From positions 1 to 64,000 of the forward strand of contig NZ_JADPUN010000177.1 in assembly GCF_015690345.1 (NCBI RefSeq): a stretch of DNA of 64,000 nt. Reading direction: 5' to 3'. How positions within the stretch are numbered: the stretch's first letter is position 1; every line of letters starts with the position of its first letter. Made by a program: the position numbers and the translations under genes. Source of the DNA: Plantactinospora alkalitolerans (GTDB lineage: Bacteria; Actinomycetota; Actinomycetes; Mycobacteriales; Micromonosporaceae). The notes beneath the pieces were generated by a model that saw only the letters and a list, made by a program, of their open reading frames with translations, was not told the DNA's origin and made no database searches. Positions 6,140 to 17,471 of this stretch are shown here, one piece after another.

Positions 6140-7918
6140 TCAGAGAGCCGGGTAGGCGTTCTGCATCAGCTGGGTGAGCTGGGCGGGGAACCAGGCACCG
6201 GAGATCGGGGCACCGGACAACGCACCACTCATGTTGTTGTTGTTACGCGGGTTACCGGTGTAGGTCGGGTCACACATCCGGTCGAAGCCCTTGCCCTCGT
6301 CGTTGTCGATGAGGGTGCTGGAGCCGTCCGACTCGCCCGGAGGCTTGATCCAGACGTACGCGTCGATGCCGGTGGCGGGCGCCGCACGGGGCCGCTCGCC
6401 GATGCCGGCACCGCTCTGGTTGCACCAGTTGCCGAGGTGGATCCGGCGGTCGATGCGGGAGCCGTTCACCTGCGCGTTGACGTCGCCCGTGGTGACCGCG
6501 GCGGTCGGCCGGCCCGCGCCGCCCCAGCCGTTACGGGAGGTGTCGATCAGCATGCCGACGTTGGAGTCGAAGCCCTGCGAGACCATCTCCGTACGGAGTG
6601 CCTGGGCGTAGCGCTGCTCGTCCACGTACCGGTTCCAGTCGATCCAGGTCGACAGCCGGTTCGCCTCGGTCACGTTGAGGTAGGGCTCCACGGTGGCCGA
6701 GAAGTTGGCGGTGTTGGCGATGAAGCCGTGCACGTTCGCCGTGGTGCTGCCCTCGGCCCGAGCCGCCTCGGCGATGATCTGCGCCGACGGCCGGAAGTTG
6801 TCGTCCCAGCCGAGCCAGCCGTGGTGGCCGACGTCGACGTAGTTGTAGACGTTCGGGATCGCGCCGAGCTTCGCCAGGGCGTAACCCACACCCTTGACGT
6901 AGTTGCCGTTGGCCTTCATCGTGTCGCAGTTCGCGGTCGCCGTCGCTCGCGGGGAGACGTTGGTGATCAGGTTCGGCAACGAGTCGATCTCGACGATCGT
7001 GATGATCCGCAGGCTGCTGTACGCCGCGTCGTCCAGGATCGCCGCAATCGGGTCGATGTAGTCCGTCTTGTACTTGGGCAGGTCCGTCGCCTGGAGTTCA
7101 CCGTTCGACGCCAGCGCAGAACAGTCGCGGCCCGGCAGGTTGTAGATGACGAACTGGATGTAGCCGGCACCCTGGGCGAGGGCCTCGTCCAGGTGGTCCC
7201 GGACGCCCATCGGGCCGTTCGAGCTGCTGTCCGGGTCACCCTCGATCGCGGAGATCCGGTCGATCCAGACGCCGGTCGGGTTGCTGGAGATCCGGTTGCC
7301 GCCGGAGACGCTCTCCGCCTTGGCCTTCCACTCCGGGTTCACGTAGCCCCGGGCACCCGAGTACGGGTTGTTCACCCGCGCCGGGCCGGGCCCGCCGGTC
7401 GGTCCGGTCGTCGGGCCGGTCGTCGGACCGGTCGTCGGCCCCGTGGTCGGACCGGTCGTCGGCCCCGTGGTCGGACCGGTGGTGGGCGGGGCGCCGTTGC
7501 AGTTCACCCCGTTGACGCTGAAGGAGGTGGGCGACGGGTTGCTGCCGCTCCACGCGCCGTTGAAGCCGATGTTGGTGGAGGCACCGGTCGCCAGGTTGCC
7601 GTTGTACGACATGTTCGTCGCGGTCACCTGGCTGCCGGACTGGGTCCAGTTGGCCGACCAGCCCTGGCTCACCCGTTGGCTGCTGTTCGGGAAGGTGAAG
7701 CGAAGGGTCCAGCCGTTGATCGCGTCGCCGACGTTCCGGATGGTGACGCTGGCGGTGAAGCCACCCTGCCACTGGTTGCTGCTGTACGTGACGTCACACC
7801 CGGGGGCGGCGTACGCCGATGTCGCAGGAAGGGTGACCAGGCCGGCAGCCACGAGGGTACTCGCGCCGGCCAATGCCACGACCTTCTGCCGGGCGGACAT
7901 TCTAGTCCGTAAATTCAT
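6140..7918 (-). CDS. Secreted GH6 exo-type cellulase with N-terminal CBM2
   Basis: The ATG at 7916-7918 has AAGGAG at proper spacing. The 592-residue protein starts with a signal peptide cut near ATSAYA (about residue 37). A type 2 cellulose-binding module follows (about 40-141, bracketed by Cys41 and Cys140 and with exposed tryptophans), then a TTGP-repeat linker (about 146-175) and a GH6 catalytic domain (about 184-592). NLPGRDC (Asp265) and VEIDSLPNL (Asp312, the expected proton donor) are present, as are VGHHGWLGW, IDTSRNGWGG and WIKPPGESDGSS. A catalytic domain near 400 residues fits cellobiohydrolases rather than the shorter endo-type GH6. It would release cellobiose from cellulose outside the cell. 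A CebR-type operator lies 250 nt upstream. Confidence 0.95.
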   Translation of the reverse strand: MNLRTRMSARQKVVALAGASTLVAAGLVTLPATSAYAAPGCDVTYSSNQWQGGFTASVTIRNVGDAINGWTLRFTFPNSSQRVSQGWSANWTQSGSQVTATNMSYNGNLATGASTNIGFNGAWSGSNPSPTSFSVNGVNCNGAPPTTGPTTGPTTGPTTGPTTGPTTGPTTGPTGGPGPARVNNPYSGARGYVNPEWKAKAESVSGGNRISSNPTGVWIDRISAIEGDPDSSSNGPMGVRDHLDEALAQGAGYIQFVIYNLPGRDCSALASNGELQATDLPKYKTDYIDPIAAILDDAAYSSLRIITIVEIDSLPNLITNVSPRATATANCDTMKANGNYVKGVGYALAKLGAIPNVYNYVDVGHHGWLGWDDNFRPSAQIIAEAARAEGSTTANVHGFIANTANFSATVEPYLNVTEANRLSTWIDWNRYVDEQRYAQALRTEMVSQGFDSNVGMLIDTSRNGWGGAGRPTAAVTTGDVNAQVNGSRIDRRIHLGNWCNQSGAGIGERPRAAPATGIDAYVWIKPPGESDGSSTLIDNDEGKGFDRMCDPTYTGNPRNNNNMSGALSGAPISGAWFPAQLTQLMQNAYPAL

Positions 7919-8167
7919 GCCAGTGATCTCCTTGGGCCAGCCGGTCACGACAGGCGGAACCGGCGCGGCGACCGCGCGGACGTGGTACTTGGTGGGTACG
8001 TCCGTGGACGCCATGGGGGACTGCGGTATGCCCGGCCCGGACGGGCGCGGGAGCGGTGGTGGTGCCGGCCGCGGGTAGCGACCGTGTTGACGCCGTCCGG
8101 AAAACCGGCTGCCCTCGGCGTCTGCTGCGCGGTGTGGCTCCCCCAGCACAGTGGATGAATTCTTGCA

Positions 8168-8181: not shown

Positions 8182-8585
8182 CCACAACACCTCGACACTG
8201 ATGGATGACGATACCTGACACCCGGCCGCGCCGCCCGGGCGACCGAGGGTGTGCCGGCTGACCGCCACCCACTTTGGACACGTCCGCACTGGTGAACGCG
8301 GAGATTCCGCACCCCACCGCGCGGCGCCGGCGAGCAAGATACCCGTGGGACAAACCGGACGACCGGCCCCCACGTCCCGGGCCAGCACCATCCCGGATGA
8401 ACAGCGGTTGACCACCCGGAACCGACGAGCACCCCCAGAAAGGCGGGATCTCGTACGGGAAGCACCCGCGAGCGCAATGGGTGCGGTAGGGCCGGTTCCC
8501 GCCAGGCTCCCAGTTAGCACGTACCGCCCCCAAGTCGGCCTGTTTGGGGAAAAGCCGAGAAAATCCGATGAAAGCTCACAAATTC

Positions 8586-8606
8586 GCTAATGTCGGTCGT
8601 GGCTCG
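8586..8606 (+). promoter_or_regulatory. Leader segment shared by the two surface-protein genes (copy 1)
   Basis: GCTAATGTCGGTCGTGGCTCG occurs 43 nt before the ATG at 8649 and differs from the copy before the second module (10794-10814) at three positions. It is the best-conserved stretch of the two leaders besides the GGGAAGG ribosome binding sites. It could be a shared transcription factor site or the transcribed leader; which one is unknown. Confidence 0.5.
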
Positions 8607-8648
8607 TCTCCCGGCGAGCCGAGACAAGAGGGAAGGATGACGAAAGTC

Positions 8649-9839
8649 ATGTCCAAGAAGTTCCTCGGCAAGGTGATCGCTGGAGCCGCTCTGGGCGGCG
8701 CGTCCCTACTGGTATGGGCCCCCTCGACCGCTCTCGCGGACGGCGGGTACCACCCGGACGGGTACCAGAAGCACGACTCGGGCCATGTCTTCGCGAAGCC
8801 GGAAGTGGCAAAGCCAGGGCAGGAGGTCAAATTCATCGAGGTCTGCTCTGAGGCGCAGGAGCACGCATGGCTGTGGTCCAAGGTCACCGGCAAGGTGGAT
8901 CTGGCACCCAAGGACCACAAGGTGGGCCACGAAGGCGGCAAGGAAGCCGACAAGAAGGCCGAAGAGCGCAAGGACGGCTGGGACGACAAGAAGGCCGGAG
9001 ACAGCGCGGAGGACGCCGCGAAGCCCGGGGACGCCGGCGGCCACGAAAGCAGCGGCGAAAACTACAAGAAAGAGCGCGAGTACCAGGAGTTCCTGAAGTA
9101 CAAGGAGCAACAGGAGTACCTCGAGTACCGCCGCTACAAGGACAAGGCGGCCCCGGAGGAGGAGCAGGCGGCCCCGGGAGAGAAGGAAGCGCCGGAGGCC
9201 GAGGGCGCTCCGTCTGCCGGAGAAGGGGCACCCGCCGCGCCTGGCCCGACGGCCGACGCGGTCCCGGCTCCGACACCGTCGGCGACCGGGCAGCTCCCCC
9301 AGCCTGCCGAGGGCTACCAGCCGCCGGCCGGCGGTGCCGGTGGCGCCATGGCGGACGACGGTAAGGCATACGAAGAGGGCGCGCAGGGCTGGGACGGCAA
9401 GAAGGCCGACGAGGGCGAGCACGGCCGGGACGACAAGAAGGCCCAGGAAGGCGAACGCACCTGGGAAGACAGCAAGCCGGCCGAGAAGGGCAAGCCCAAC
9501 TCGGACGAGAAGAAGGCCCAGGAGGGCGAGCACGGCTGGGAGGACAAGAAGGCCGACGAGGGCGAGCACGGCTGGGACGACAAGAAGGCCGGCTACGAGT
9601 ACTGGGCCAGTGTCACCATCCCGTGGGACGCCAAGCCGGGGACGTACGAAGTGAAGGGCTCGTGCGGCGAGGGCGAGTTCGTCGTCACGCCCAAGGGTTG
9701 GGTCGACGGTGGTGACGGTGGACTCACCTCCGGCAGCAGCGACAACCTCGCGGTTGCGGGCGTGGGCATGCTCGGCATGGCCGCCCTCGGCGGGCTGGTA
9801 CTGATGCGGCAGCGCCGTACCGATGAATCGCACGCCTGA
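8649..9839 (+). CDS. Surface protein 1: split beta-sandwich with charged-repeat insert, sortase-type C terminus
   Basis: The ATG at 8649 gives MSKKFLGKVIAG, which aligns with the paralogue at 10858 and has GGGAAGG 12 nt upstream; an ATG at 8637 touches the ribosome binding site and is less likely. The 396-residue protein has a signal peptide (to about STALA). The first half-domain (about 38-85) contains KPGQEVKFIEVC and WLWSKVTGK. A long Lys/Asp/Glu-rich insert (about 90-315) follows, with 12-residue KKADEGEHGWDD-like repeats. The second half-domain (about 318-350) is YWASVTIPWDAKPGTYEVKG followed by a Cys. Then come VDGGDGG, a membrane helix and an RQRRTDE tail. The two half-domains resemble one interrupted Ig-like fold closed by a disulfide. 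It overlaps its sortase gene by 17 nt. Confidence 0.85.
   Translation: MSKKFLGKVIAGAALGGASLLVWAPSTALADGGYHPDGYQKHDSGHVFAKPEVAKPGQEVKFIEVCSEAQEHAWLWSKVTGKVDLAPKDHKVGHEGGKEADKKAEERKDGWDDKKAGDSAEDAAKPGDAGGHESSGENYKKEREYQEFLKYKEQQEYLEYRRYKDKAAPEEEQAAPGEKEAPEAEGAPSAGEGAPAAPGPTADAVPAPTPSATGQLPQPAEGYQPPAGGAGGAMADDGKAYEEGAQGWDGKKADEGEHGRDDKKAQEGERTWEDSKPAEKGKPNSDEKKAQEGEHGWEDKKADEGEHGWDDKKAGYEYWASVTIPWDAKPGTYEVKGSCGEGEFVVTPKGWVDGGDGGLTSGSSDNLAVAGVGMLGMAALGGLVLMRQRRTDESHA
9370..9590. repeat. Imperfect 36-bp coding repeat in surface protein 1
   Basis: Units of about 36 nt encoding KKADEGEHGxDD, KKAQEGERTWED, KKAQEGEHGWED and KKADEGEHGWDD recur through this stretch, separated by one divergent unit. They form the C-terminal part of the charged insert. 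Confidence 0.8.
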
Positions 9840-10596
9840 CTCGGCGGTGCGCGGGGCCGGCGGCCGTCACGGGGTACCGTGGCGCGCCGCCGGCATCAGC
9901 CTGGTCGCCCTGTTGGCGCTGGTCGGTGCCGGTCTGATCGGCGCCGGCCTGAACGCTCCGGATCCGACAGCACCGCCACAGCCGAGTGCCGCCGCCGCAC
10001 CGCAGAACCCCGACGACGAGTCCACGACCGCCGCACCGCAGACCGGAGCGGCCCTTCCACCGACGGCCACGCCGCCGCCCGGATCGGATCTCCCCGAGGT
10101 CGCCCAGACACCCGGAGCCATGCCGACCAGGAGATCCCTCGACCGGTCCGAACCGATCAGGATCGCCATTCCGAAGATCGACGTCGGTGCGACGATCATG
10201 CCGCTCGGGGTCACCGCCGACGGCATGGTCCAGGTGCCGCCGTTGGCAAAGGCGCAACTCGCCGGGTGGTACCAACTCGGCCCGGCACCCGGGGAGGTCG
10301 GCAACGCCGTGATCGTCGGCCACGTCGACTCGAAGGAGATCGGGCCGGCGGTGTTCTTCCGACTGGGGGCCCTGCTGCCCGGAGACACGATCGAGGTGAT
10401 CCGGAAGGACGGCAAGATCGCCAACTTCGTCGTCGAGGGCGTGAAGTCGTACCCGAAGACGGCGTTTCCGACCGACCTCGTCTACGGTCCGACCGACGTG
10501 CCGGGACTGCGGCTCATAACCTGCGGCGGCGACTTCGACGAGCGGATCGGCTCCTATCCCGACAACATCATCGCCTTCGCCAGGCTTGCCACCTGA
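9823..10596 (+). CDS. Class F sortase 1
   Basis: The 257-residue protein has a single N-terminal membrane helix (about 22-43), a Pro/Ala/Thr-rich spacer (about 44-105) and a sortase domain. IAIPKIDVGATI opens the barrel, NAVIVGHVDS carries the catalytic His, LRLITCGG the catalytic Cys, and DERIGSYPDNIIAFA the Arg, all as in class F sortases of actinobacteria. It should act outside the membrane, cutting a sorting signal and linking the protein to the cell wall. It overlaps the preceding surface-protein gene by 17 nt, which makes that protein the obvious substrate. The start at 9823 lacks a good ribosome binding site, so translational coupling or the in-frame GTG at 9847 are possible. Confidence 0.92.
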   Translation: MNRTPDSAVRGAGGRHGVPWRAAGISLVALLALVGAGLIGAGLNAPDPTAPPQPSAAAAPQNPDDESTTAAPQTGAALPPTATPPPGSDLPEVAQTPGAMPTRRSLDRSEPIRIAIPKIDVGATIMPLGVTADGMVQVPPLAKAQLAGWYQLGPAPGEVGNAVIVGHVDSKEIGPAVFFRLGALLPGDTIEVIRKDGKIANFVVEGVKSYPKTAFPTDLVYGPTDVPGLRLITCGGDFDERIGSYPDNIIAFARLAT

Positions 10597-10623
10597 GCGG
10601 GACGGCTACACCGTAGGGCCTGT

Positions 10624-10657
10624 TTCGGGGGACGGCGATCGCTCGCCGTCCCCCGAA
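10624..10657 (+). terminator. Perfect hairpin after sortase 1
   Basis: TTCGGGGGACGGCG (10624-10637) pairs with CGCCGTCCCCCGAA (10644-10657) around a 6-nt loop, 28 nt after the sortase stop. It separates the two modules transcriptionally. Confidence 0.8.
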
Positions 10658-10793
10658 GGTGTATCTCCGGGCCCGCGAGGTCGACAAGGCCCCGCAAGCA
10701 CGGCAACGCCCGATGTTGGCGACAACCGCTCTATCACCTCAATACGAGCTTTCGGAAAAAATACTCGTAATCACGACATCAACTCCCAAAGTG

Positions 10794-10814
10794 GCTAGCG
10801 TCGGTCGTAGCTCG
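10794..10814 (+). promoter_or_regulatory. Leader segment shared by the two surface-protein genes (copy 2)
   Basis: GCTAGCGTCGGTCGTAGCTCG matches 18 of 21 positions of the copy at 8586-8606. It sits 44 nt before the ATG at 10858, almost the same distance as in module 1. The preceding 60 nt are AT-rich (TTCGGAAAAAATACTCG), as in module 1. Confidence 0.5.
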
Positions 10815-10857
10815 ACTGGCCGTCGGGCGAACCAACGGGGAAGGAGTACCTCGAGAT

Positions 10858-11577
10858 ATGAGTAGCAAGTTGCTAAAGGTGATGGCCGGCGCTGGCCTGG
10901 GCGCCGCCGCACTATTGATCTGCGCGCCCGGAACCGCCCTGGCGGATGACGCCCCTCCCGGACACGAGTACAACAAGGGCTACATCTACACCGAGCCGAA
11001 GGGGGTGAAGCCGGGACACAAGTTCAAGATTCTGCTCAAGTGCGAGCACCCGGTGCAGCGGCCCTGGGTGTGGTCGAAGATCACCGGCAAGCTCTGGCTC
11101 AAGCCCGTGGAAGAGAACGGTGGGTGGGAGCCGGAACACCCACAGGCGCCCGACGACGGCCAGCCCGAAGACCCCGGCCAGCCGGAGAACCCCGGCCAGC
11201 CCTCGCAGCCTCCGGGGCAACCGACGCCGCCCCCGAACGGCGGGCAGCCAGGAGTGCCGCAGGACGGGCCGCCACAGGCCGAAACCGACGAGCCGGACCA
11301 GGGCGGCGAGGGCGGCCAGGCGGCGTACGGCAACGAGGCGAAATACTGGGCCTGGGCCGAGGTCCCTTGGAAGACCGGGCCCGGCCACTACGCGGCCAAG
11401 GGAGCGTGTGGCAACGGCAGGATCGTGGTCCTGCCTCGCGGCTCCGTCGACGGTGGTGAGGGTGGAGCCAGCACCGACCCGAGCCGTACCGCCGCCGGTG
11501 CGAGCCTGTTGGGGGCGGCCGCGCTCGGCGGATTCCTACTGATCCGTCGGCGTCGTACCGATGGCTCACCCGCCTGA
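10858..11577 (+). CDS. Surface protein 2: split beta-sandwich with proline-rich insert, sortase-type C terminus
   Basis: The ATG is preceded by GGGGAAGGAG. The 239-residue protein is a paralogue of the product at 8649. It has a signal peptide (to about GTALA), a first half-domain with KPGHKFKILLKC and WVWSKITGKLWLKP, an insert of about 85 residues, and a second half-domain YWAWAEVPWKTGPGHYAAKG plus Cys. VDGGEGG, a membrane helix and RRRRTDG follow. The insert is made of PGQPENPGQPSQPPGQP-like repeats, completely unlike the charged insert of protein 1, although the flanks align. Two cysteines at matching positions could form a disulfide. It overlaps the next sortase gene by 17 nt. Confidence 0.85.
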   Translation: MSSKLLKVMAGAGLGAAALLICAPGTALADDAPPGHEYNKGYIYTEPKGVKPGHKFKILLKCEHPVQRPWVWSKITGKLWLKPVEENGGWEPEHPQAPDDGQPEDPGQPENPGQPSQPPGQPTPPPNGGQPGVPQDGPPQAETDEPDQGGEGGQAAYGNEAKYWAWAEVPWKTGPGHYAAKGACGNGRIVVLPRGSVDGGEGGASTDPSRTAAGASLLGAAALGGFLLIRRRRTDGSPA

Positions 11578-12361
11578 GGTGCCGATCAGGGGCGCCGGCG
11601 GCCGGCACGGGCAACCGTGGCGTGCCGCCGGCGTCGTGCTGGTCGCCCTGCTGGCCCTCGGCGGAATCACGCTGGTCGCCACCGGCCTCAGTCTGGTCCC
11701 GGCGCAGCCACCTCAACCGGTGGACAGCGTGCCCGAGACGGCCCCGGCGCCGGACTGGGGCGCCGGAACGGACTTCGGCACGGACCTCGGATTGGACCTC
11801 GGCTCGGGGCTGGAGTCGACGACACCGACCCCGTCGACGACCACCGGACCCGCCCGTACGGGTCCGCCCGCCGGCACCCCGACGACACCGGCACCGGTGG
11901 CCCTGCCCCGATCCGAACCGACCACGATCGCGATACCGAAGATCAAGGTGAACGCCAAGATCATATCGATCGGACTGAACGGCGACGGCACGGTCCAGGT
12001 GCCTCCGCTGAAGCAGGCCCAACTCGCCGGCTGGTACAAGCTCGGCGTGAGCCCCGGCGAGATCGGTAACGCCGTCGTCGTCGGACACGTCGACTCGGCA
12101 GCGATGGGACCGGCGGTCTTCTTCAAACTCGGCGCGCTCCGACAGGGCGACGAGCTGCGGGTGACCCGCAAGGACGGCGAGATCGTCCGATTCGCCGTGG
12201 ACACCGTCGAGTCATATCCGAAGACGGCGTTCCCGGCCGAGCTGGTCTACGGAGCCGTCGACACCGCCCGACTCCAGGTGGTCACCTGCGGCGGCAAATT
12301 CGATCGTAAGAAGGGCAGCTATCCCAACAACATCGTGGTGTCCGCGACCCGGATCCCATGA
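11561..12361 (+). CDS. Class F sortase 2
   Basis: This 266-residue paralogue of sortase 1 has the same layout: RGAGGRHGQPWRAAG before the N-terminal membrane helix (about 25-45), a Thr/Pro-rich spacer to about residue 110, and the sortase domain. IAIPKIKVNAKI, NAVVVGHVDS (catalytic His), LQVVTCGGKFD (catalytic Cys) and KGSYPNNIVV (lysine-rich where sortase 1 has DERIGSYP) are visible. Next to the active site the Arg is probably supplied from FDRKKGSYP. It overlaps surface protein 2 by 17 nt, exactly as in module 1, and a terminator follows 6 nt after its stop. The likely job is anchoring surface protein 2. Confidence 0.92.
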   Translation: MAHPPEVPIRGAGGRHGQPWRAAGVVLVALLALGGITLVATGLSLVPAQPPQPVDSVPETAPAPDWGAGTDFGTDLGLDLGSGLESTTPTPSTTTGPARTGPPAGTPTTPAPVALPRSEPTTIAIPKIKVNAKIISIGLNGDGTVQVPPLKQAQLAGWYKLGVSPGEIGNAVVVGHVDSAAMGPAVFFKLGALRQGDELRVTRKDGEIVRFAVDTVESYPKTAFPAELVYGAVDTARLQVVTCGGKFDRKKGSYPNNIVVSATRIP

Positions 12362-12366
12362 GTCGC

Positions 12367-12406
12367 GGAGCCTGGCCGGCGCGACCTCGCCGGCCGGCCA
12401 GGCTCC
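12367..12406. terminator. Hairpin between sortase 2 and glutamate dehydrogenase (convergent)
   Basis: GGAGCCTGGCCGGC (12367-12380) pairs with a GCCGGCCAGGCTCC-type arm ending at 12406. It fills the short space between the convergent stops at 12361 and 12417, so it can serve both genes. Confidence 0.75.
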
Positions 12407-12416
12407 CCGGTACGTC

Positions 12417-15400
12417 TCAGCTGGCCGCCGACGTACGCACCAGCGTGCGGATCTGTCGCAGCAGCACGGAGAGCGCCGCCAGATCGGCCCGGGACTCGTC
12501 GAACTCCCCCATCGCCCTGCGGGTCCGGTTGATCGAGATGGAATTCGACCGCTCCCACTGCTCGACCCGCTCGTCCGGAGCCAGGTCGGCCGAAGTCCCG
12601 CTGAGCACCTCGGCGGTGAGCGCGGCCAGTGCGGCATAGAGGTCGTACCGCAACGCCATCCGGGCGAGCGTCTGCCAGCGGTCCTCCCTCGGCAGCAGCG
12701 AGATCTTCGACAACAGGGAGTCGACCCGGAAGCGGTCGGAGAGTACGAAGTAGACCGCCGCGACCTCGCTGACGTCCCGACCGGTCGTGGTGGCCGTCTC
12801 GACCACGTCCAGCAGTCCGAAGCTGTACATCAGCCGGGTCGCCTGCTCGGCCAGTTCCCGGGGCAGCCCCCGCCCGACCGACGCCTCGACGTGCGCCTCC
12901 AGCGCCCGCCGTTCGCTGCCGTAGAACAGGTTGCCCAGCTCCGGCAGGAGGCGGGACACCCCGTCGCGCAATCGGGCGACCTCGGTCGGCACGTCGATCG
13001 GGGAGCGCCGGTTCGTCACCAGCCACCGGACCGCGCGGTCGAGCAACCGGCGGGTGTCGAGGTAGACCGCGGTCTGCACCTCGGTCGGCACCCGGTTGTC
13101 CAACGCCTCGATGTCGGCCCAGACCTCGCGCAGCCCGAACACCTCGCGGACCACCACGTACGCCCGGATCACGTCCGCCGGGGTCGCGCCGGTCTCCTCC
13201 ACCACCCGGTAGATGAACGAGATGCCGCCCCGGTTGACCGCCTCGTTCACCAGCATGGTGGTGACGATGTCCCGGTGCAGGCGGTGGTCCGACATCCGGT
13301 CGGCGTACCGCTGGCGCAGCGGGGTCGGGAAGTAGCCGGCGAGCACCTCGAAGGTCCACTCCTCGTCCGGTAGCCCGTCGGCCAGGATCTCCCGCTCCAG
13401 CACGATCTTGACGTACGCGAGCAGCACCGCGAACTCCGGCGCGGTCAGTCCCGAGTCGGTCCTGGTCGCCAGTTCCTCGTCCGGCGGCAGCGCCTCCAAC
13501 TCCCGGTTGAGGTGACCGGCGCGCTCGAAGTCGGAGATCATCCGCCGGTGTACCGGCAGCAGGGACGCCGCCTGGGCCATCGCGTTGCCGATCGCCCGCG
13601 CCTGGTCGTAGTTGTCCCGCAGCACCAGGTGGGTGACCTCGTCGGTCATCTCCGCCAGCAGGGCGTCCCGGTCCGGAACGCTGAGCTGGCCGTCGGCCAC
13701 CGCCGCGCCGAGCAGGATCTTGATGTTGACCTCGTGGTCCGAGGTGTCCACCCCGGCCGCGTTGTCGATGAAGTCGGTGAAGATCCGGCCACCCCCGAGG
13801 GCGTACTCGATCCGGCCGACCTGGGTGAAGCCCAGGTTGCCGCCCTCGCCGACCACCTTGCAACGCAGGTCCCTGCCGTCCACCCGGATGGCGTCGTTGG
13901 ACTTGTCGCCGACCTGGCCGTTGGACTCCGACGACGCCTTGACGTAGGTACCGATCCCACCGTTCCAGAACAGGTCGACCGGAGCGCTCAGGATCGCCTT
14001 CATCAGCTCCTGCGGGGACATCGACTCGGCACCCGCGTCGAGGTCGAGCGCCGCCCGGACCTGCGGACTGATCGGGATCGACTTCGCGGTACGCGGGTAG
14101 ATCCCGCCCCCTTCCGAGATCAGCTCCGGATTGTAGTCCGCCCAGGAGGAGCGCGGCTGGTCGAACAGCCGCCGCCGCTCCTGATAGGAGGACGCGGCGT
14201 CGGGATCCGGATCCAGGATGATGTGCCGGTGGTCGAAGGCGGCCACCAGCCGGATGTGCTCCGACAGCAGCATTCCGTTACCGAAGACGTCGCCCGACAT
14301 GTCGCCGACGCCGGCCACGGTGAAGTCCTGGGCCTGGGTGTCGATCCCCATGTCCCGGAAGTGCCGCTTCACCGACTCCCAGGCACCCCGGGCGGTGATG
14401 CCCATCTTCTTGTGGTCGTAGCCGGCCGAGCCGCCGGAGGCGAACGCGTCGGCCAGCCAGAATCCCTGGGACACCGAGATCTCGTTGGCGATGTCGGAGA
14501 AGCTGGCGGTGCCCTTGTCCGCCGCCACCACCAGGTAAGGGTCGTCGGCGTCGTGCCGGACCACGTCGTGCGGCGGCACGATCTGCCCACCGACCAGGTT
14601 GTCCGTCACGTCCAGCAGGGCCGAGATGAACCCCTTGTAACAGGCCACCGCCTCGTCCCGGTCGCCCGGCTTCTGCTTGAGCACGAAGCCACCCTTGGCA
14701 CCCACCGGCACGATCACCGCGTTCTTCACCATCTGCGCCTTGACCAGGCCCAGCACCTCGGTACGGAAATCCTCCCGCCGGTCCGACCAGCGGATGCCAC
14801 CCCGGGCCACCGGCCCGAACCGCAGGTGCACACCCTCGAAACGCGGCGAGTAGACGAAGATCTCGTACTTCGGCCGGGGCGCCGGCAGGTCAGGGATCGC
14901 CTGCGGGTCCAGCTTGAACGCCACGTACGACTTGGGCCGCCCGTCCATCCGGCGCTGGTAGAAGCTGGTCCGCAGGGTGGCCTGGATCAGCGTCAGGTAC
15001 GACCGCAGGATCCGGTCCTGGTCGAGGCTGCTCACCTCGTCGAGCTGCTGCCCGATGCTGGTCACCAGCTCCTTGCTGCGCAGCACGCGCTCCTCGGCGC
15101 CGCGGCCCGGCGACGGCGAGAACCGCACCTCGAAGAGTTCCACCAACGAGGCGGCGATCGCGGGGTAGGCGATGAAGGTGGACTCCATGTAGTCCTGCGA
15201 GAAGACCGTGCCGGCCTGCCGCAGGTACTTCGCGTACGCCCGCAGCACCACCACCTGCCGCCAGGTGAGGCCGCCGCGCAGTACCAGTTCGTTGAAGCCG
15301 TCGACCTCGGCCTCGCCGCGCCAGGTGGCGGAGAAGGCGTTCTCCACGTGCGGGCGGACCTCGGCGAGATCCCGGGCGCCGTCCGGCAACTCCAGGCCGA

Positions 15401-17471
15401 AGTCGTAGAGGTAGATCCGCCCGTCGATCCGGTCCACCTCGTACGGGTGCTCGTCGACCACCCGTACGCCGAGGGAGTGCAGCACCGGCAGCACCGCGGA
15501 GAGCACCATCGGCTCGCCGTACCGGTAGACCTTGAACCGGACGTCCTCGATCGCGGTGGCCGGTGCGGTCCCGCCCGGCCGGACGGCCTGCTGCTTGCGG
15601 AACATGTGCATCTCGAGCTGGCCCGGCTCTTCGAGCAGTTCGAGCTTGGCGAGGTCCTTCATCGCCTCGTACGGGGTGTGCCCGTCCTTGTAGCCCTCCG
15701 GGAACGCGTCGGCGTACCGGGTGAACAGCCGCTTAGCCTGCTCGTCGCCGAGCTTGCGCTCCAGCACCAGCCGGTAGTCGTCGTCCCACAGCCGGGTGGC
15801 GTCGGCGAGTTCCTCGGCGAGCAGGTCCGCGTCGACCTCGCTCGGCGGGTTGGCCGGGTCGGTCCGGACGATGAAGTGCACCCGGGCGAGCATCGACTCG
15901 GTGACCCGGGTGGTGTAGTCGACCCCGATCCCGTTCAGCTCGCGGAGCAGGATCTCCTGCATCCGTAGCCGGTTCTGGGTGGTGAACCGGTCCCGGGGCA
16001 GGTAGATCAGGCAGGAGATGAACCGGCCGTAACCGTCACGGCGCAGGAAGACCCGCAACTGGCGGCGGCCCGCCATCCGGAGCACCCCGACGACCGCGTG
16101 GTAGAGGTCGTCGGTCTTGATCTGGAACAGCTCGTCGCGCGGATAGGTCTCCAGGATCTGCAGCAGGTCCTTGCCGGAGTGGCTGCGCGGGCTCAGCCCG
16201 GACCGGTCCAGCACCTCGGCGACCTTCCGCCGGACCACCGGCAGCTCGCGGACGCTGGTCCGGTACGCCGCCGTGGCGAGCAGGCCGAGAAAGCGTCGCT
16301 CTCCCACCACATCGCCGGCTTCGTTGAAGACCTTGAAACCGATGTAGTCCAGGTACGCGGACCGGTGCACGGTGGCCCGGGAGTTCGCCTTGGTGATGAT
16401 GAGCAGGCGCTTCTCCGTCACCTTCTGGTGCGCCTCCGGCGTCATGGAGGACAGTGCCCTCGGCACCGTCGAGTCCTGACGCAGGATGCCGAGTCCGGTG
16501 CCGAGGACCGCCTCCAGCGCCTTCTCACCGCCGGAGACCTCGACCAGCCGGTACTCGCGGTAACCGAGGAAGGTGAAGTGTTCGTGCGCGAGCCAGCGCA
16601 GCAGTTCCACCGAGTCCGTGATGTCCTTCTCCGGCACCGGTGGGCGGTTCTCCGCGGTGCGGGCCGCGGCCAACTCGTCGGCGAGCGCCAGGGCCCGCTG
16701 CCGCATTTTCGGCCAGTCTTCCACCGCCTCGCGTACGTCGGTGAGCACCCGCTGCAACTCGGCCCGCAATCGGTCCCGGTCCGCCGCACCGCGGACAGGA
16801 TCGATCTCTATTCGCATCCAGCTCTCGACGATGTCGCCGTCGATCGCGTCGTCGGGTTCGACGTCGGCGGCGACCTCGGTCAACCTGCCGAGCGGCTCGC
16901 GGCGGACCACCACGAGCGGATGAACCAGCATGTGTACGTCGAGGTGGTGACCGGTGAGCAGGGCGGTGATCGAATCCACCAGGAAGGGCATATCGTCCGT
17001 GACGATCTCGATCACGGTGTGCTGCTGGTCCGGAACCGGCTCGTGGATCCGGATCTTCAACTCGCCCGGCACCCGCTGCTCGGCCAGCTCCCGATGAGCC
17101 CGCGCCGCGGTCAGCATCTCCTCGGCGGTGAACCCGATCAGCTCCTCGTCCGGCGCGAACCGCCAGAACCGGTCGACAAGCGTCGCCGCGTCGTGGTCGT
17201 TCCCGGCCAGCGTGACCGCCTGGGCGACGAGGCGCTCCGCGTTCGGCACCGGCTCGTCGAGGTCCGCGTCCTCCACGTCGTCCGCCAGCGCCTCCGGTGG
17301 CAGCCCCAGGTCGTAGAGAGTGTCGATGCTGGCTCCCGGTACGCCGGTCACGCCGGATGCGAGTCGAGAGCCGACCCCGTCATCGTCGACCGCCGTGTCG
17401 TAGCTGTCATCTCGGTCGGCATAAGCCGGCCGGAGATCGGGTTCCGGTTTGATCGCCGGACGCCGGTCCAT
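12417..17471 (-). CDS. gdh: NAD-specific glutamate dehydrogenase, large (about 180 kDa) type
   Basis: At 1684 residues this matches the very large NAD-dependent glutamate dehydrogenases of actinobacteria and proteobacteria, which convert glutamate to 2-oxoglutarate and ammonium. The ATG at 17469-17471 follows GGGGAG. The N-terminal half (to about 730) holds the family's regulatory ACT-like segments, for example HTVIEIVTDDMPFLVDSITALL. The catalytic region includes RWSDRREDFRTEVLGLVKAQ and the lysine motif PVGAKGGFVLK (about residue 924). The nucleotide-binding part includes GEGGNLGFTQVGRIEYALGGG (about 1220). A helical C-terminal domain completes the chain. It stands alone between two terminators and a 409-nt upstream region, so it is probably monocistronic. 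Confidence 0.96.
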   Translation of the reverse strand: MDRRPAIKPEPDLRPAYADRDDSYDTAVDDDGVGSRLASGVTGVPGASIDTLYDLGLPPEALADDVEDADLDEPVPNAERLVAQAVTLAGNDHDAATLVDRFWRFAPDEELIGFTAEEMLTAARAHRELAEQRVPGELKIRIHEPVPDQQHTVIEIVTDDMPFLVDSITALLTGHHLDVHMLVHPLVVVRREPLGRLTEVAADVEPDDAIDGDIVESWMRIEIDPVRGAADRDRLRAELQRVLTDVREAVEDWPKMRQRALALADELAAARTAENRPPVPEKDITDSVELLRWLAHEHFTFLGYREYRLVEVSGGEKALEAVLGTGLGILRQDSTVPRALSSMTPEAHQKVTEKRLLIITKANSRATVHRSAYLDYIGFKVFNEAGDVVGERRFLGLLATAAYRTSVRELPVVRRKVAEVLDRSGLSPRSHSGKDLLQILETYPRDELFQIKTDDLYHAVVGVLRMAGRRQLRVFLRRDGYGRFISCLIYLPRDRFTTQNRLRMQEILLRELNGIGVDYTTRVTESMLARVHFIVRTDPANPPSEVDADLLAEELADATRLWDDDYRLVLERKLGDEQAKRLFTRYADAFPEGYKDGHTPYEAMKDLAKLELLEEPGQLEMHMFRKQQAVRPGGTAPATAIEDVRFKVYRYGEPMVLSAVLPVLHSLGVRVVDEHPYEVDRIDGRIYLYDFGLELPDGARDLAEVRPHVENAFSATWRGEAEVDGFNELVLRGGLTWRQVVVLRAYAKYLRQAGTVFSQDYMESTFIAYPAIAASLVELFEVRFSPSPGRGAEERVLRSKELVTSIGQQLDEVSSLDQDRILRSYLTLIQATLRTSFYQRRMDGRPKSYVAFKLDPQAIPDLPAPRPKYEIFVYSPRFEGVHLRFGPVARGGIRWSDRREDFRTEVLGLVKAQMVKNAVIVPVGAKGGFVLKQKPGDRDEAVACYKGFISALLDVTDNLVGGQIVPPHDVVRHDADDPYLVVAADKGTASFSDIANEISVSQGFWLADAFASGGSAGYDHKKMGITARGAWESVKRHFRDMGIDTQAQDFTVAGVGDMSGDVFGNGMLLSEHIRLVAAFDHRHIILDPDPDAASSYQERRRLFDQPRSSWADYNPELISEGGGIYPRTAKSIPISPQVRAALDLDAGAESMSPQELMKAILSAPVDLFWNGGIGTYVKASSESNGQVGDKSNDAIRVDGRDLRCKVVGEGGNLGFTQVGRIEYALGGGRIFTDFIDNAAGVDTSDHEVNIKILLGAAVADGQLSVPDRDALLAEMTDEVTHLVLRDNYDQARAIGNAMAQAASLLPVHRRMISDFERAGHLNRELEALPPDEELATRTDSGLTAPEFAVLLAYVKIVLEREILADGLPDEEWTFEVLAGYFPTPLRQRYADRMSDHRLHRDIVTTMLVNEAVNRGGISFIYRVVEETGATPADVIRAYVVVREVFGLREVWADIEALDNRVPTEVQTAVYLDTRRLLDRAVRWLVTNRRSPIDVPTEVARLRDGVSRLLPELGNLFYGSERRALEAHVEASVGRGLPRELAEQATRLMYSFGLLDVVETATTTGRDVSEVAAVYFVLSDRFRVDSLLSKISLLPREDRWQTLARMALRYDLYAALAALTAEVLSGTSADLAPDERVEQWERSNSISINRTRRAMGEFDESRADLAALSVLLRQIRTLVRTSAAS

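What the first reader, a model, noticed from the sequence alone, without database searches (positions are those of the whole stretch)
8649..12361. Two tandem surface-protein/class F sortase modules
Seen: a secreted, C-terminally anchored protein followed by an overlapping class F sortase, then a terminator, then a second copy of the same pair. Both substrates and both sortases are paralogues, and each module has its own leader. Known: class F sortases with dedicated adjacent substrates are poorly characterised. Inference: this is a duplicated, diverged surface-display system in which each sortase may be private to its neighbour.
Basis: partly seen in the sequence, partly recalled or inferred. 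Interest (0 to 1): 0.8.

Follow-up and report, generated by a model that had tools for sequence, protein, structure and literature searches.

The report
Tandem class F sortase–substrate cassettes
A soil actinomycete carries two neighbouring copies of a two-gene cassette, each a surface protein plus the enzyme that probably glues it to the cell wall, and the attachment signal is an unusual glycine-glycine version that lacks the threonine such enzymes normally need.

Summary
8649-12361 holds two tandem cassettes. Each is a secreted, C-terminally anchored protein whose gene overlaps a class F sortase gene by 17 nt; sortases are 52% identical, substrates about 40% in their conserved parts. Each cassette has its own conserved leader with a covarying hairpin and ends in a strong hairpin.

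Relatives such as Micromonospora have one cassette at this locus (between a GH6-like gene and NAD-GDH); all seven genomes of this genus have two.

The main finding is the sorting signal. Class F sortases almost always sit behind a protein ending P-x-x-[G/A]-x-x-[T/A/G]-G-x-G-[G/S]-TM-Arg (86 of 90 strong signals in 61 genomes are sortase-adjacent). This genome has five class F sortases and five such signals, all adjacent. Here the P1 threonine is glycine (WVDG|GDGG, SVDG|GEGG), a trait following the sortase tree.

A 2026 Actinoplanes study set such neighbours aside for lack of a known motif; NCBIfam has a related GVDTG model. Pairing is real and widespread. 'Private' is supported against other paralogues but untested between the two copies, whose signals are nearly the same. 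No biochemistry exists for P1-Gly cleavage. New variant of a known kind.

The parts
8587..8648 (+). Leader of cassette 1: CTAATGTCGGTCGTGGCTCG element, then hairpin (8601-8608 with 8613-8620) and GGGAAGG ribosome-binding region
   Evidence: Conserved in 28 cassettes across the family at 61-69 nt before the start codon; hairpin pairs covary, 94% of cells paired, covariation 0.323 vs 0.155 shuffled; within the genome exact only upstream of the two cassettes
8649..9839 (+). sub1: secreted surface protein, 396 aa: signal peptide, split Ig-like domain with a long charged repeat insertion, sorting signal, TM helix, RQRR tail
   Evidence: Ig-like fold predicted for its paralogue sub2 from a shared alignment
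9371..9591 (+). 36-bp tandem repeats (6.1 copies) coding E-G-E-H-G-W-D-D-K-K-A type units inside the sub1 insertion
9702..9722 (+). Sorting-signal core of sub1, VDGGDGG (P3-P4'; predicted cleavage between the two G of DG|GD)
9823..10596 (+). srtF1: class F sortase, 257 aa, N-terminal TM anchor, H167/C234/N248
10624..10657 (+). Terminator-like hairpin after srtF1, 15-bp stem, no U-tract
   Evidence: z -4.7; not found by consensus scan
10795..10857 (+). Leader of cassette 2: CTAGCGTCGGTCGTAGCTCG element, hairpin (10810-10816 with 10822-10828), GGGGAAGGAG
10858..11577 (+). sub2: secreted surface protein, 239 aa: signal peptide, Ig-like domain split by a disordered Pro-rich insertion (about residues 86-160), sorting signal, TM helix, RRRR tail
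   Evidence: AlphaFold model with pLDDT 93-97 on most of the two halves of the beta-sandwich and about 40-57 in the insertion; Ig-like matches
11446..11466 (+). Sorting-signal core of sub2, VDGGEGG
11561..12361 (+). srtF2: class F sortase, 266 aa, N-terminal TM anchor, H176/C243/N257
12367..12406 (.). Terminator-like hairpin between srtF2 and the convergent NAD-GDH gene, possibly serving both
   Evidence: z -4.4

Best explanation
Each cassette is a self-contained surface-display unit. The substrate is exported by its signal peptide and held by its C-terminal helix and basic tail. The co-translated class F sortase (gene overlap 17 nt, so probably translational coupling) recognises the signal P-[RK]-G-[W/S]-V-D-G-G-[D/E]-G-G. 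Its cysteine most likely cuts between the first two glycines (VDG|GDGG, VDG|GEGG) and passes the protein to peptidoglycan or lipid II. What is then displayed is an Ig-like domain whose two halves are joined by a long disordered loop. One cassette was duplicated whole, leader included, before the living species of this genus split, and the copies' loops diverged: charged repeats in sub1, Pro-rich in sub2. Shown here: genes, paralogy, synteny, leader, signal conservation, adjacency. Inferred: cleavage, its position, wall linkage, coupling and specificity.
For: Class F membership and sortase fold. Signal conservation: 27 distinct P1-Gly substrates keep P7 Pro, P5 Gly, P3 Val, P1' Gly, P3' Gly and P4' Gly without exception, while the linker positions after them vary (sets were picked by motif, so P1 itself is circular). 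Of 90 strong signals in 61 family genomes, 86 lie just upstream of a class F sortase. This genome has five class F sortases and exactly five strong signals, all adjacent; the next hit is E 0.003. Substrate bodies are swapped while signal and sortase stay: DUF4397-like by eye (L003), multicopper oxidase (L073), Asp/Lys/Arg-rich repeats (L146). P1 state follows the sortase tree: 13 changes against 62.9 in shuffles (15 against 38.0). The same framework occurs in Blastococcus, Modestobacter, Cryobacterium, Actinomadura, Rhodococcus and others, with P1 Thr there. Synteny shows one cassette in relatives and two here.
Against: No biochemistry or proteomics. Co-inheritance of an operon explains the tree match without any co-evolution of specificity; only four well-supported independent contrasts were available, too few to test. 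P1 Gly has no precedent that I found; the papers read here report Ala, Ser, Cys or Leu as alternatives to Thr at P1 and poor use of Glu (PMC10763551, PMC9126251). Deleting all four class F sortases in Actinoplanes missouriensis gave no visible phenotype (PMC13251363). The NCBIfam GVDTG model scores both window substrates below its cut-off as whole proteins (22.7 and 26.8 against 29). Sister relation of the two copies is not resolved (AU p 0.07 for sortases, 0.29 for substrates).
Confidence: 0.72

Rival explanations
1. The two sortases do process their neighbours but are not private: either enzyme, and perhaps other class F sortases, can act on either P1-Gly substrate. The duplication is about displaying two different loops, not two specificities. 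(This is a variant of the best explanation and not exclusive of it.)
For: The two signals share all near-invariant positions (V-x-G-G-x-G-G) and differ only at P4 and P2' in this genome. Copy 2 signals vary between species (SVPGG, WVHGG, HVPAG) with no obvious loss. Orphan substrates in G041, G053 and G016 must use a distant enzyme if they are processed.
Against: Strict adjacency in nearly all genomes and conserved overlap argue for local pairing, though that may be about co-expression rather than specificity.
Confidence: 0.5
2. The C-terminal region is cut elsewhere, or the proteins stay as membrane-tethered proteins; the Gly-rich run is a flexible linker and the sortase acts on it weakly or not at all.
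For: Thr at P1 is otherwise the sortase rule; Gly runs are common linkers; the quadruple class F deletion in A. missouriensis had no phenotype.
Against: Position-specific conservation (fixed Val, fixed Gly at four sites besides P1, Asp/Ala/Glu at P2') is not linker-like. The glycine state is nearly confined to one sortase clade, and GVDGGDGG in Micromonospora differs from GVDTGAGG only at P1 and P2'.
Confidence: 0.2
3. The glycine signal is a GlyGly-CTERM type signal handled by a rhomboid protease (rhombosortase), and the adjacent sortase has another job.
For: GlyGly-CTERM domains are also Gly-rich motif, helix, basic tail (PMC3237569, PMC6219818). Two generic rhomboids are in this genome.
Against: No protein passes the rhombosortase cut-off in this genome: best 58.1 bits against 84, and all 14 control genomes also give sub-threshold matches. 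Adjacency is to class F sortases in 86 of 90 cases, whereas GlyGly-CTERM is described as many-to-one (title of PMC3237569).
Confidence: 0.03

Closest known systems
Class F sortases of actinobacteria (NCBIfam NF033748; C. acnes SrtF; A. missouriensis SrtF1-4)
   Same: Family score above cut-off, His and Cys, Asn in place of Arg, N-terminal membrane anchor; two of the four A. missouriensis genes also have an adjacent secreted, C-anchored protein
   Different: Tandem duplication of the whole substrate-sortase cassette; neighbours carry a P1-Gly signal. In A. missouriensis the neighbours were set aside because no known pentapeptide motif was found (PMC13251363)
NCBIfam NF058571 GVDTG_CTERM sorting domain
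   Same: Same length, helix and basic tail; motif aligns position for position (GVDTGxGG with WVDGGDGG)
   Different: P1 Thr is replaced by Gly; whole-protein scores fall below the curated cut-off
LPXTG / LAXTG wall-anchored proteins with class A or class E sortases (e.g. CwpA, CwpB, SspA with SrtE; long chaplins)
   Same: Tripartite C-terminus, cysteine transpeptidase; disordered mature regions in SspA and CwpA-F
   Different: No LPXTG-like pentapeptide; one enzyme per substrate and operon-linked instead of one housekeeping enzyme for many
GlyGly-CTERM and rhombosortase
   Same: Gly-rich motif, helix, basic tail
   Different: Likely processing enzyme here is a sortase, one-to-one pairing, no rhombosortase above cut-off in the genome

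Membership tests
Class F sortase | Curated family model above cut-off | tested here: met
   NF033748: 197.8 and 195.6 bits, cut-off 166
Class F sortase | Catalytic His and Cys; Asn at the Arg site as described for actinobacterial class F | tested here: met
   Aligned to 172 sortases with P1 T, A or G: H and C in all, N257 in 170 of 172; Asn for Arg reported in PMC6998099. That N257 is that site is inferred from its position after Cys
Class F sortase | Transpeptidase activity | not testable with these tools
   needs an enzyme assay
Sortase substrate (tripartite wall-anchoring C-terminus) | Signal peptide, motif, hydrophobic helix, basic tail | tested here: met
   Sequences; hydropathy-based screen
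LPXTG-type anchored protein | LPXTG-like pentapeptide with Thr at P1 | tested here: not met
   Motifs are WVDGGDGG and SVDGGEGG; TIGR01167 only E 0.29 and below cut-off for sub2
GVDTG_CTERM (NF058571) | Score above curated cut-off of 29 bits | tested here: inconclusive
   22.7 and 26.8 bits as whole proteins; 27.7 and 30.9 in the genome scan
GVDTG_CTERM (NF058571) | Thr at P1 | tested here: not met
   Gly at P1 in both
GlyGly-CTERM / rhombosortase | A rhombosortase in the genome | tested here: not met
   Best TIGR03902 score 58.1, cut-off 84; assembly is 96% complete, so absence is not absolute
Ig-like domain | Seven-strand beta-sandwich | tested here: inconclusive
   Predicted sandwich with pLDDT 93-97 in residues about 41-80 and 161-190; best Foldseek E 0.03 and VIA Z about 8, mostly Ig-like chains: a common arrangement, not a named family

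The most novel reading that the evidence does not exclude
A clade of class F sortases in Micromonosporaceae has shifted its sorting signal from Thr-Gly to Gly-Gly cleavage, and in one genus this Gly-Gly sortase cassette has been duplicated into two parallel enzyme-substrate channels. This would be a natural sortase with glycine at P1, recognised by a framework (P-x-G-x-V-x-G|G-x-G-G) rather than by LPXTG.
Probability: 0.45. Interest if true: 0.72.

Novelty: new variant of a known kind. Interest (0 to 1): 0.55.

Why it matters
Class F sortases have no known physiological role, and the 2026 study that deleted all four in one species left their likely substrates out because they lack LPXTG-like motifs. 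The signal defined here names a likely substrate for nearly every class F sortase examined, so the open question of what class F sortases do becomes directly testable. If P1 glycine is truly cut, it would widen the known chemistry of sortases and could give an orthogonal Gly-Gly ligase for protein engineering.

Tried and rejected
Sigma-70 promoter and U-tract terminator consensus scan: nothing useful on the + strand. Rfam scan of 8300-12500: no match, so the leader hairpin is not a described family. PADLOC, PHROGs, plasmid and phage searches were not run: nothing points to defence or mobile DNA. Pfam on substrates: nothing. Alternative cut sites such as LTSG in sub1 or STG in Micromonospora were rejected because they are not conserved between orthologues. 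Residue 170 (Asn in 32 of 33 P1-Gly sortases, Pro in 82 of 106 P1-Thr) looked like a specificity site, but Asn also occurs there in the aligned class D structure and the independent-pairs test had only four supported contrasts, so it is reported as confounded by ancestry. Searching solved structures by sequence found no close relative (only 4d70, class D). AU tests could not decide whether the two copies are sisters. The first pattern for the leader had a wrong spacer and found only one copy; corrected.
Full report
OBSERVATION. Both sortases pass the class F model, and their catalytic domains keep the His and Cys; an Asn is invariant where the Arg is expected, as reported for actinobacterial class F (PMC6998099; own alignment). 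Each sortase begins 17 nt inside its substrate gene, an overlap kept in all nine genus pairs measured and in most outgroup pairs (14 nt in two). A strong hairpin without a U-tract separates the cassettes and another follows the second.

SURROUNDINGS AND ORIGIN. The genome is a Micromonosporaceae species: a genome that the tools place in the window's family has the same sortase as Asanoa siamensis, and the nearest named relatives are Micromonospora, Salinispora and Asanoa. The cassettes lie between a divergent gene that looks like a GH6 cellulase and a convergent NAD-glutamate dehydrogenase. In ten named loci with the dehydrogenase (nine Micromonospora, one Salinispora), and in five further family genomes, the same place holds one cassette as far as the fetched stretches and the sortase positions show; in all seven genomes of this genus it holds two. 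One of the seven (G001) has its first substrate broken by contig ends. Sortase copies 1 and 2 each form a clade (100/99), as do the substrate copies, so the duplication is older than the genus's sampled species. Whether the two copies are sisters is unresolved (AU p 0.07 and 0.29).

LEADER. Both cassettes and 26 relatives share an element close to CTARYGTCGGTCNTRGCTCG at 61-69 nt before the start codon, followed by a hairpin. On 22 leaders the stem is paired in 94% of cells, against 87% in shuffles and 22-44% when slid; covariation is 0.323 against 0.155. In the 9.2-Mb genome the element matches exactly only in front of these two cassettes; other hits have three mismatches, at or below the reversed-pattern control. 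It is not in Rfam. It may contain a -10 box followed by a transcript-leader hairpin; that is inference.

SUBSTRATES. AlphaFold on sub2 gives a confident beta-sandwich in two halves (about residues 41-80 and 161-190) with a disordered insertion between them, Ig-like by Foldseek and VIA, weakly. In sub1 the insertion is over 200 residues of charged and proline-containing sequence, including 36-bp tandem repeats. Two Cys, one in each half, are conserved and could form the usual disulfide. In some relatives the Ig-like body is gone and only repeats remain (L146, L065), and elsewhere the body is a DUF4397-like protein (by eye) or a multicopper oxidase. What stays constant is the C-terminal signal.

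SIGNAL. From 175 class F sortases with a neighbour I extracted the motif by pattern plus hand correction. The shared framework is P-x-x-[G/A/W/H]-[P/V/A]-x-[T/A/G]-G-x-G-[G/S] then helix and Arg tail. P1 is Thr in 106, Ala in 33, Gly in 33, other in 3. P1-Gly is almost one clade of sortases, all in Micromonosporaceae, and includes both window enzymes; the label needs 13 changes on the tree against 62.9 in shuffles (15 against 38 in the family-only tree). Part of that is plain co-inheritance of an operon. A profile of the signal (14 rows, some from this genome) finds five strong hits in this genome, all beside its five class F sortases, and nothing else better than E 0.003 (sortase count). In 61 family genomes 86 of the 90 best hits are just upstream of a class F sortase; of the four others one sits next to a frame-broken class F sortase, two are multicopper oxidases and one a small secreted protein. 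Starting from the sortases instead, 114 of 126 had such a neighbour in the fetched stretch; at least some of the 12 without are cut by the ends of the stretch.

MECHANISM. Most likely each sortase cuts its co-expressed neighbour between VDG and G(D/E)GG and links it to the wall, so that an Ig-like head with a long loop is displayed. Shown: anatomy, conservation, adjacency, duplication. Inferred: cleavage, its place, wall linkage. The claim of privacy between the two copies is not supported by the sequence: the two signals are nearly the same.

KNOWN OR NEW. Class F sortases and a GVDTG sorting domain are in NCBIfam. In the open-access library I found no paper that names the GVDTG signal, and the only genetic study of several class F sortases that I found (PMC13251363) saw no phenotype and left the neighbours out for want of a pentapeptide, while saying that they may be substrates. 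The P1-Gly form and the tandem cassette look undescribed. The C. acnes SrtF work (Di Girolamo 2019, cited in PMC13251363) was not available to read; that it uses LPXTG peptides is from memory.

LIMITS.

Noticed in passing
window 6140-8000 (-): Divergent neighbour with a CBM2-like and GH6 cellulase-like sequence (read by eye, not scanned); it flanks the cassette in Micromonospora and Salinispora too, so display and cellulose use may be linked.
   Followed up: partly
window 12417-17471 (-): Large NAD-type glutamate dehydrogenase-like gene (1684 aa, named by eye), convergent with srtF2, probably sharing its terminator hairpin.
   Followed up: partly
L073:472-2547 and L281, L282, L283: Multicopper oxidases (PhsA/CueO-like) bearing the class F type sorting signal: one beside a class F sortase, three as orphans. 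Suggests wall-displayed copper oxidases.
   Followed up: partly
L284 (G062:C1:1008389): A strong signal protein followed by a class F sortase split over two frames: a broken or mis-sequenced copy.
   Followed up: no
L062: Two paralogous substrates in a row before a single class F sortase (motifs AGTGGGA and PETGGGA): one enzyme with two adjacent substrates.
   Followed up: no
L002, L004, L003, L001: The same genome has three further class F cassettes with Thr-type signals (GPATGGGG, GPATGFGG, GVDTGAGG), and one further sortase of another class at a different locus (L001).
   Followed up: partly
L002:2326-2928 (contig C143): The NCBIfam GVDTG model misses the GPATGGGG substrate of this genome, so annotation based on it undercounts class F substrates.
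   Followed up: partly
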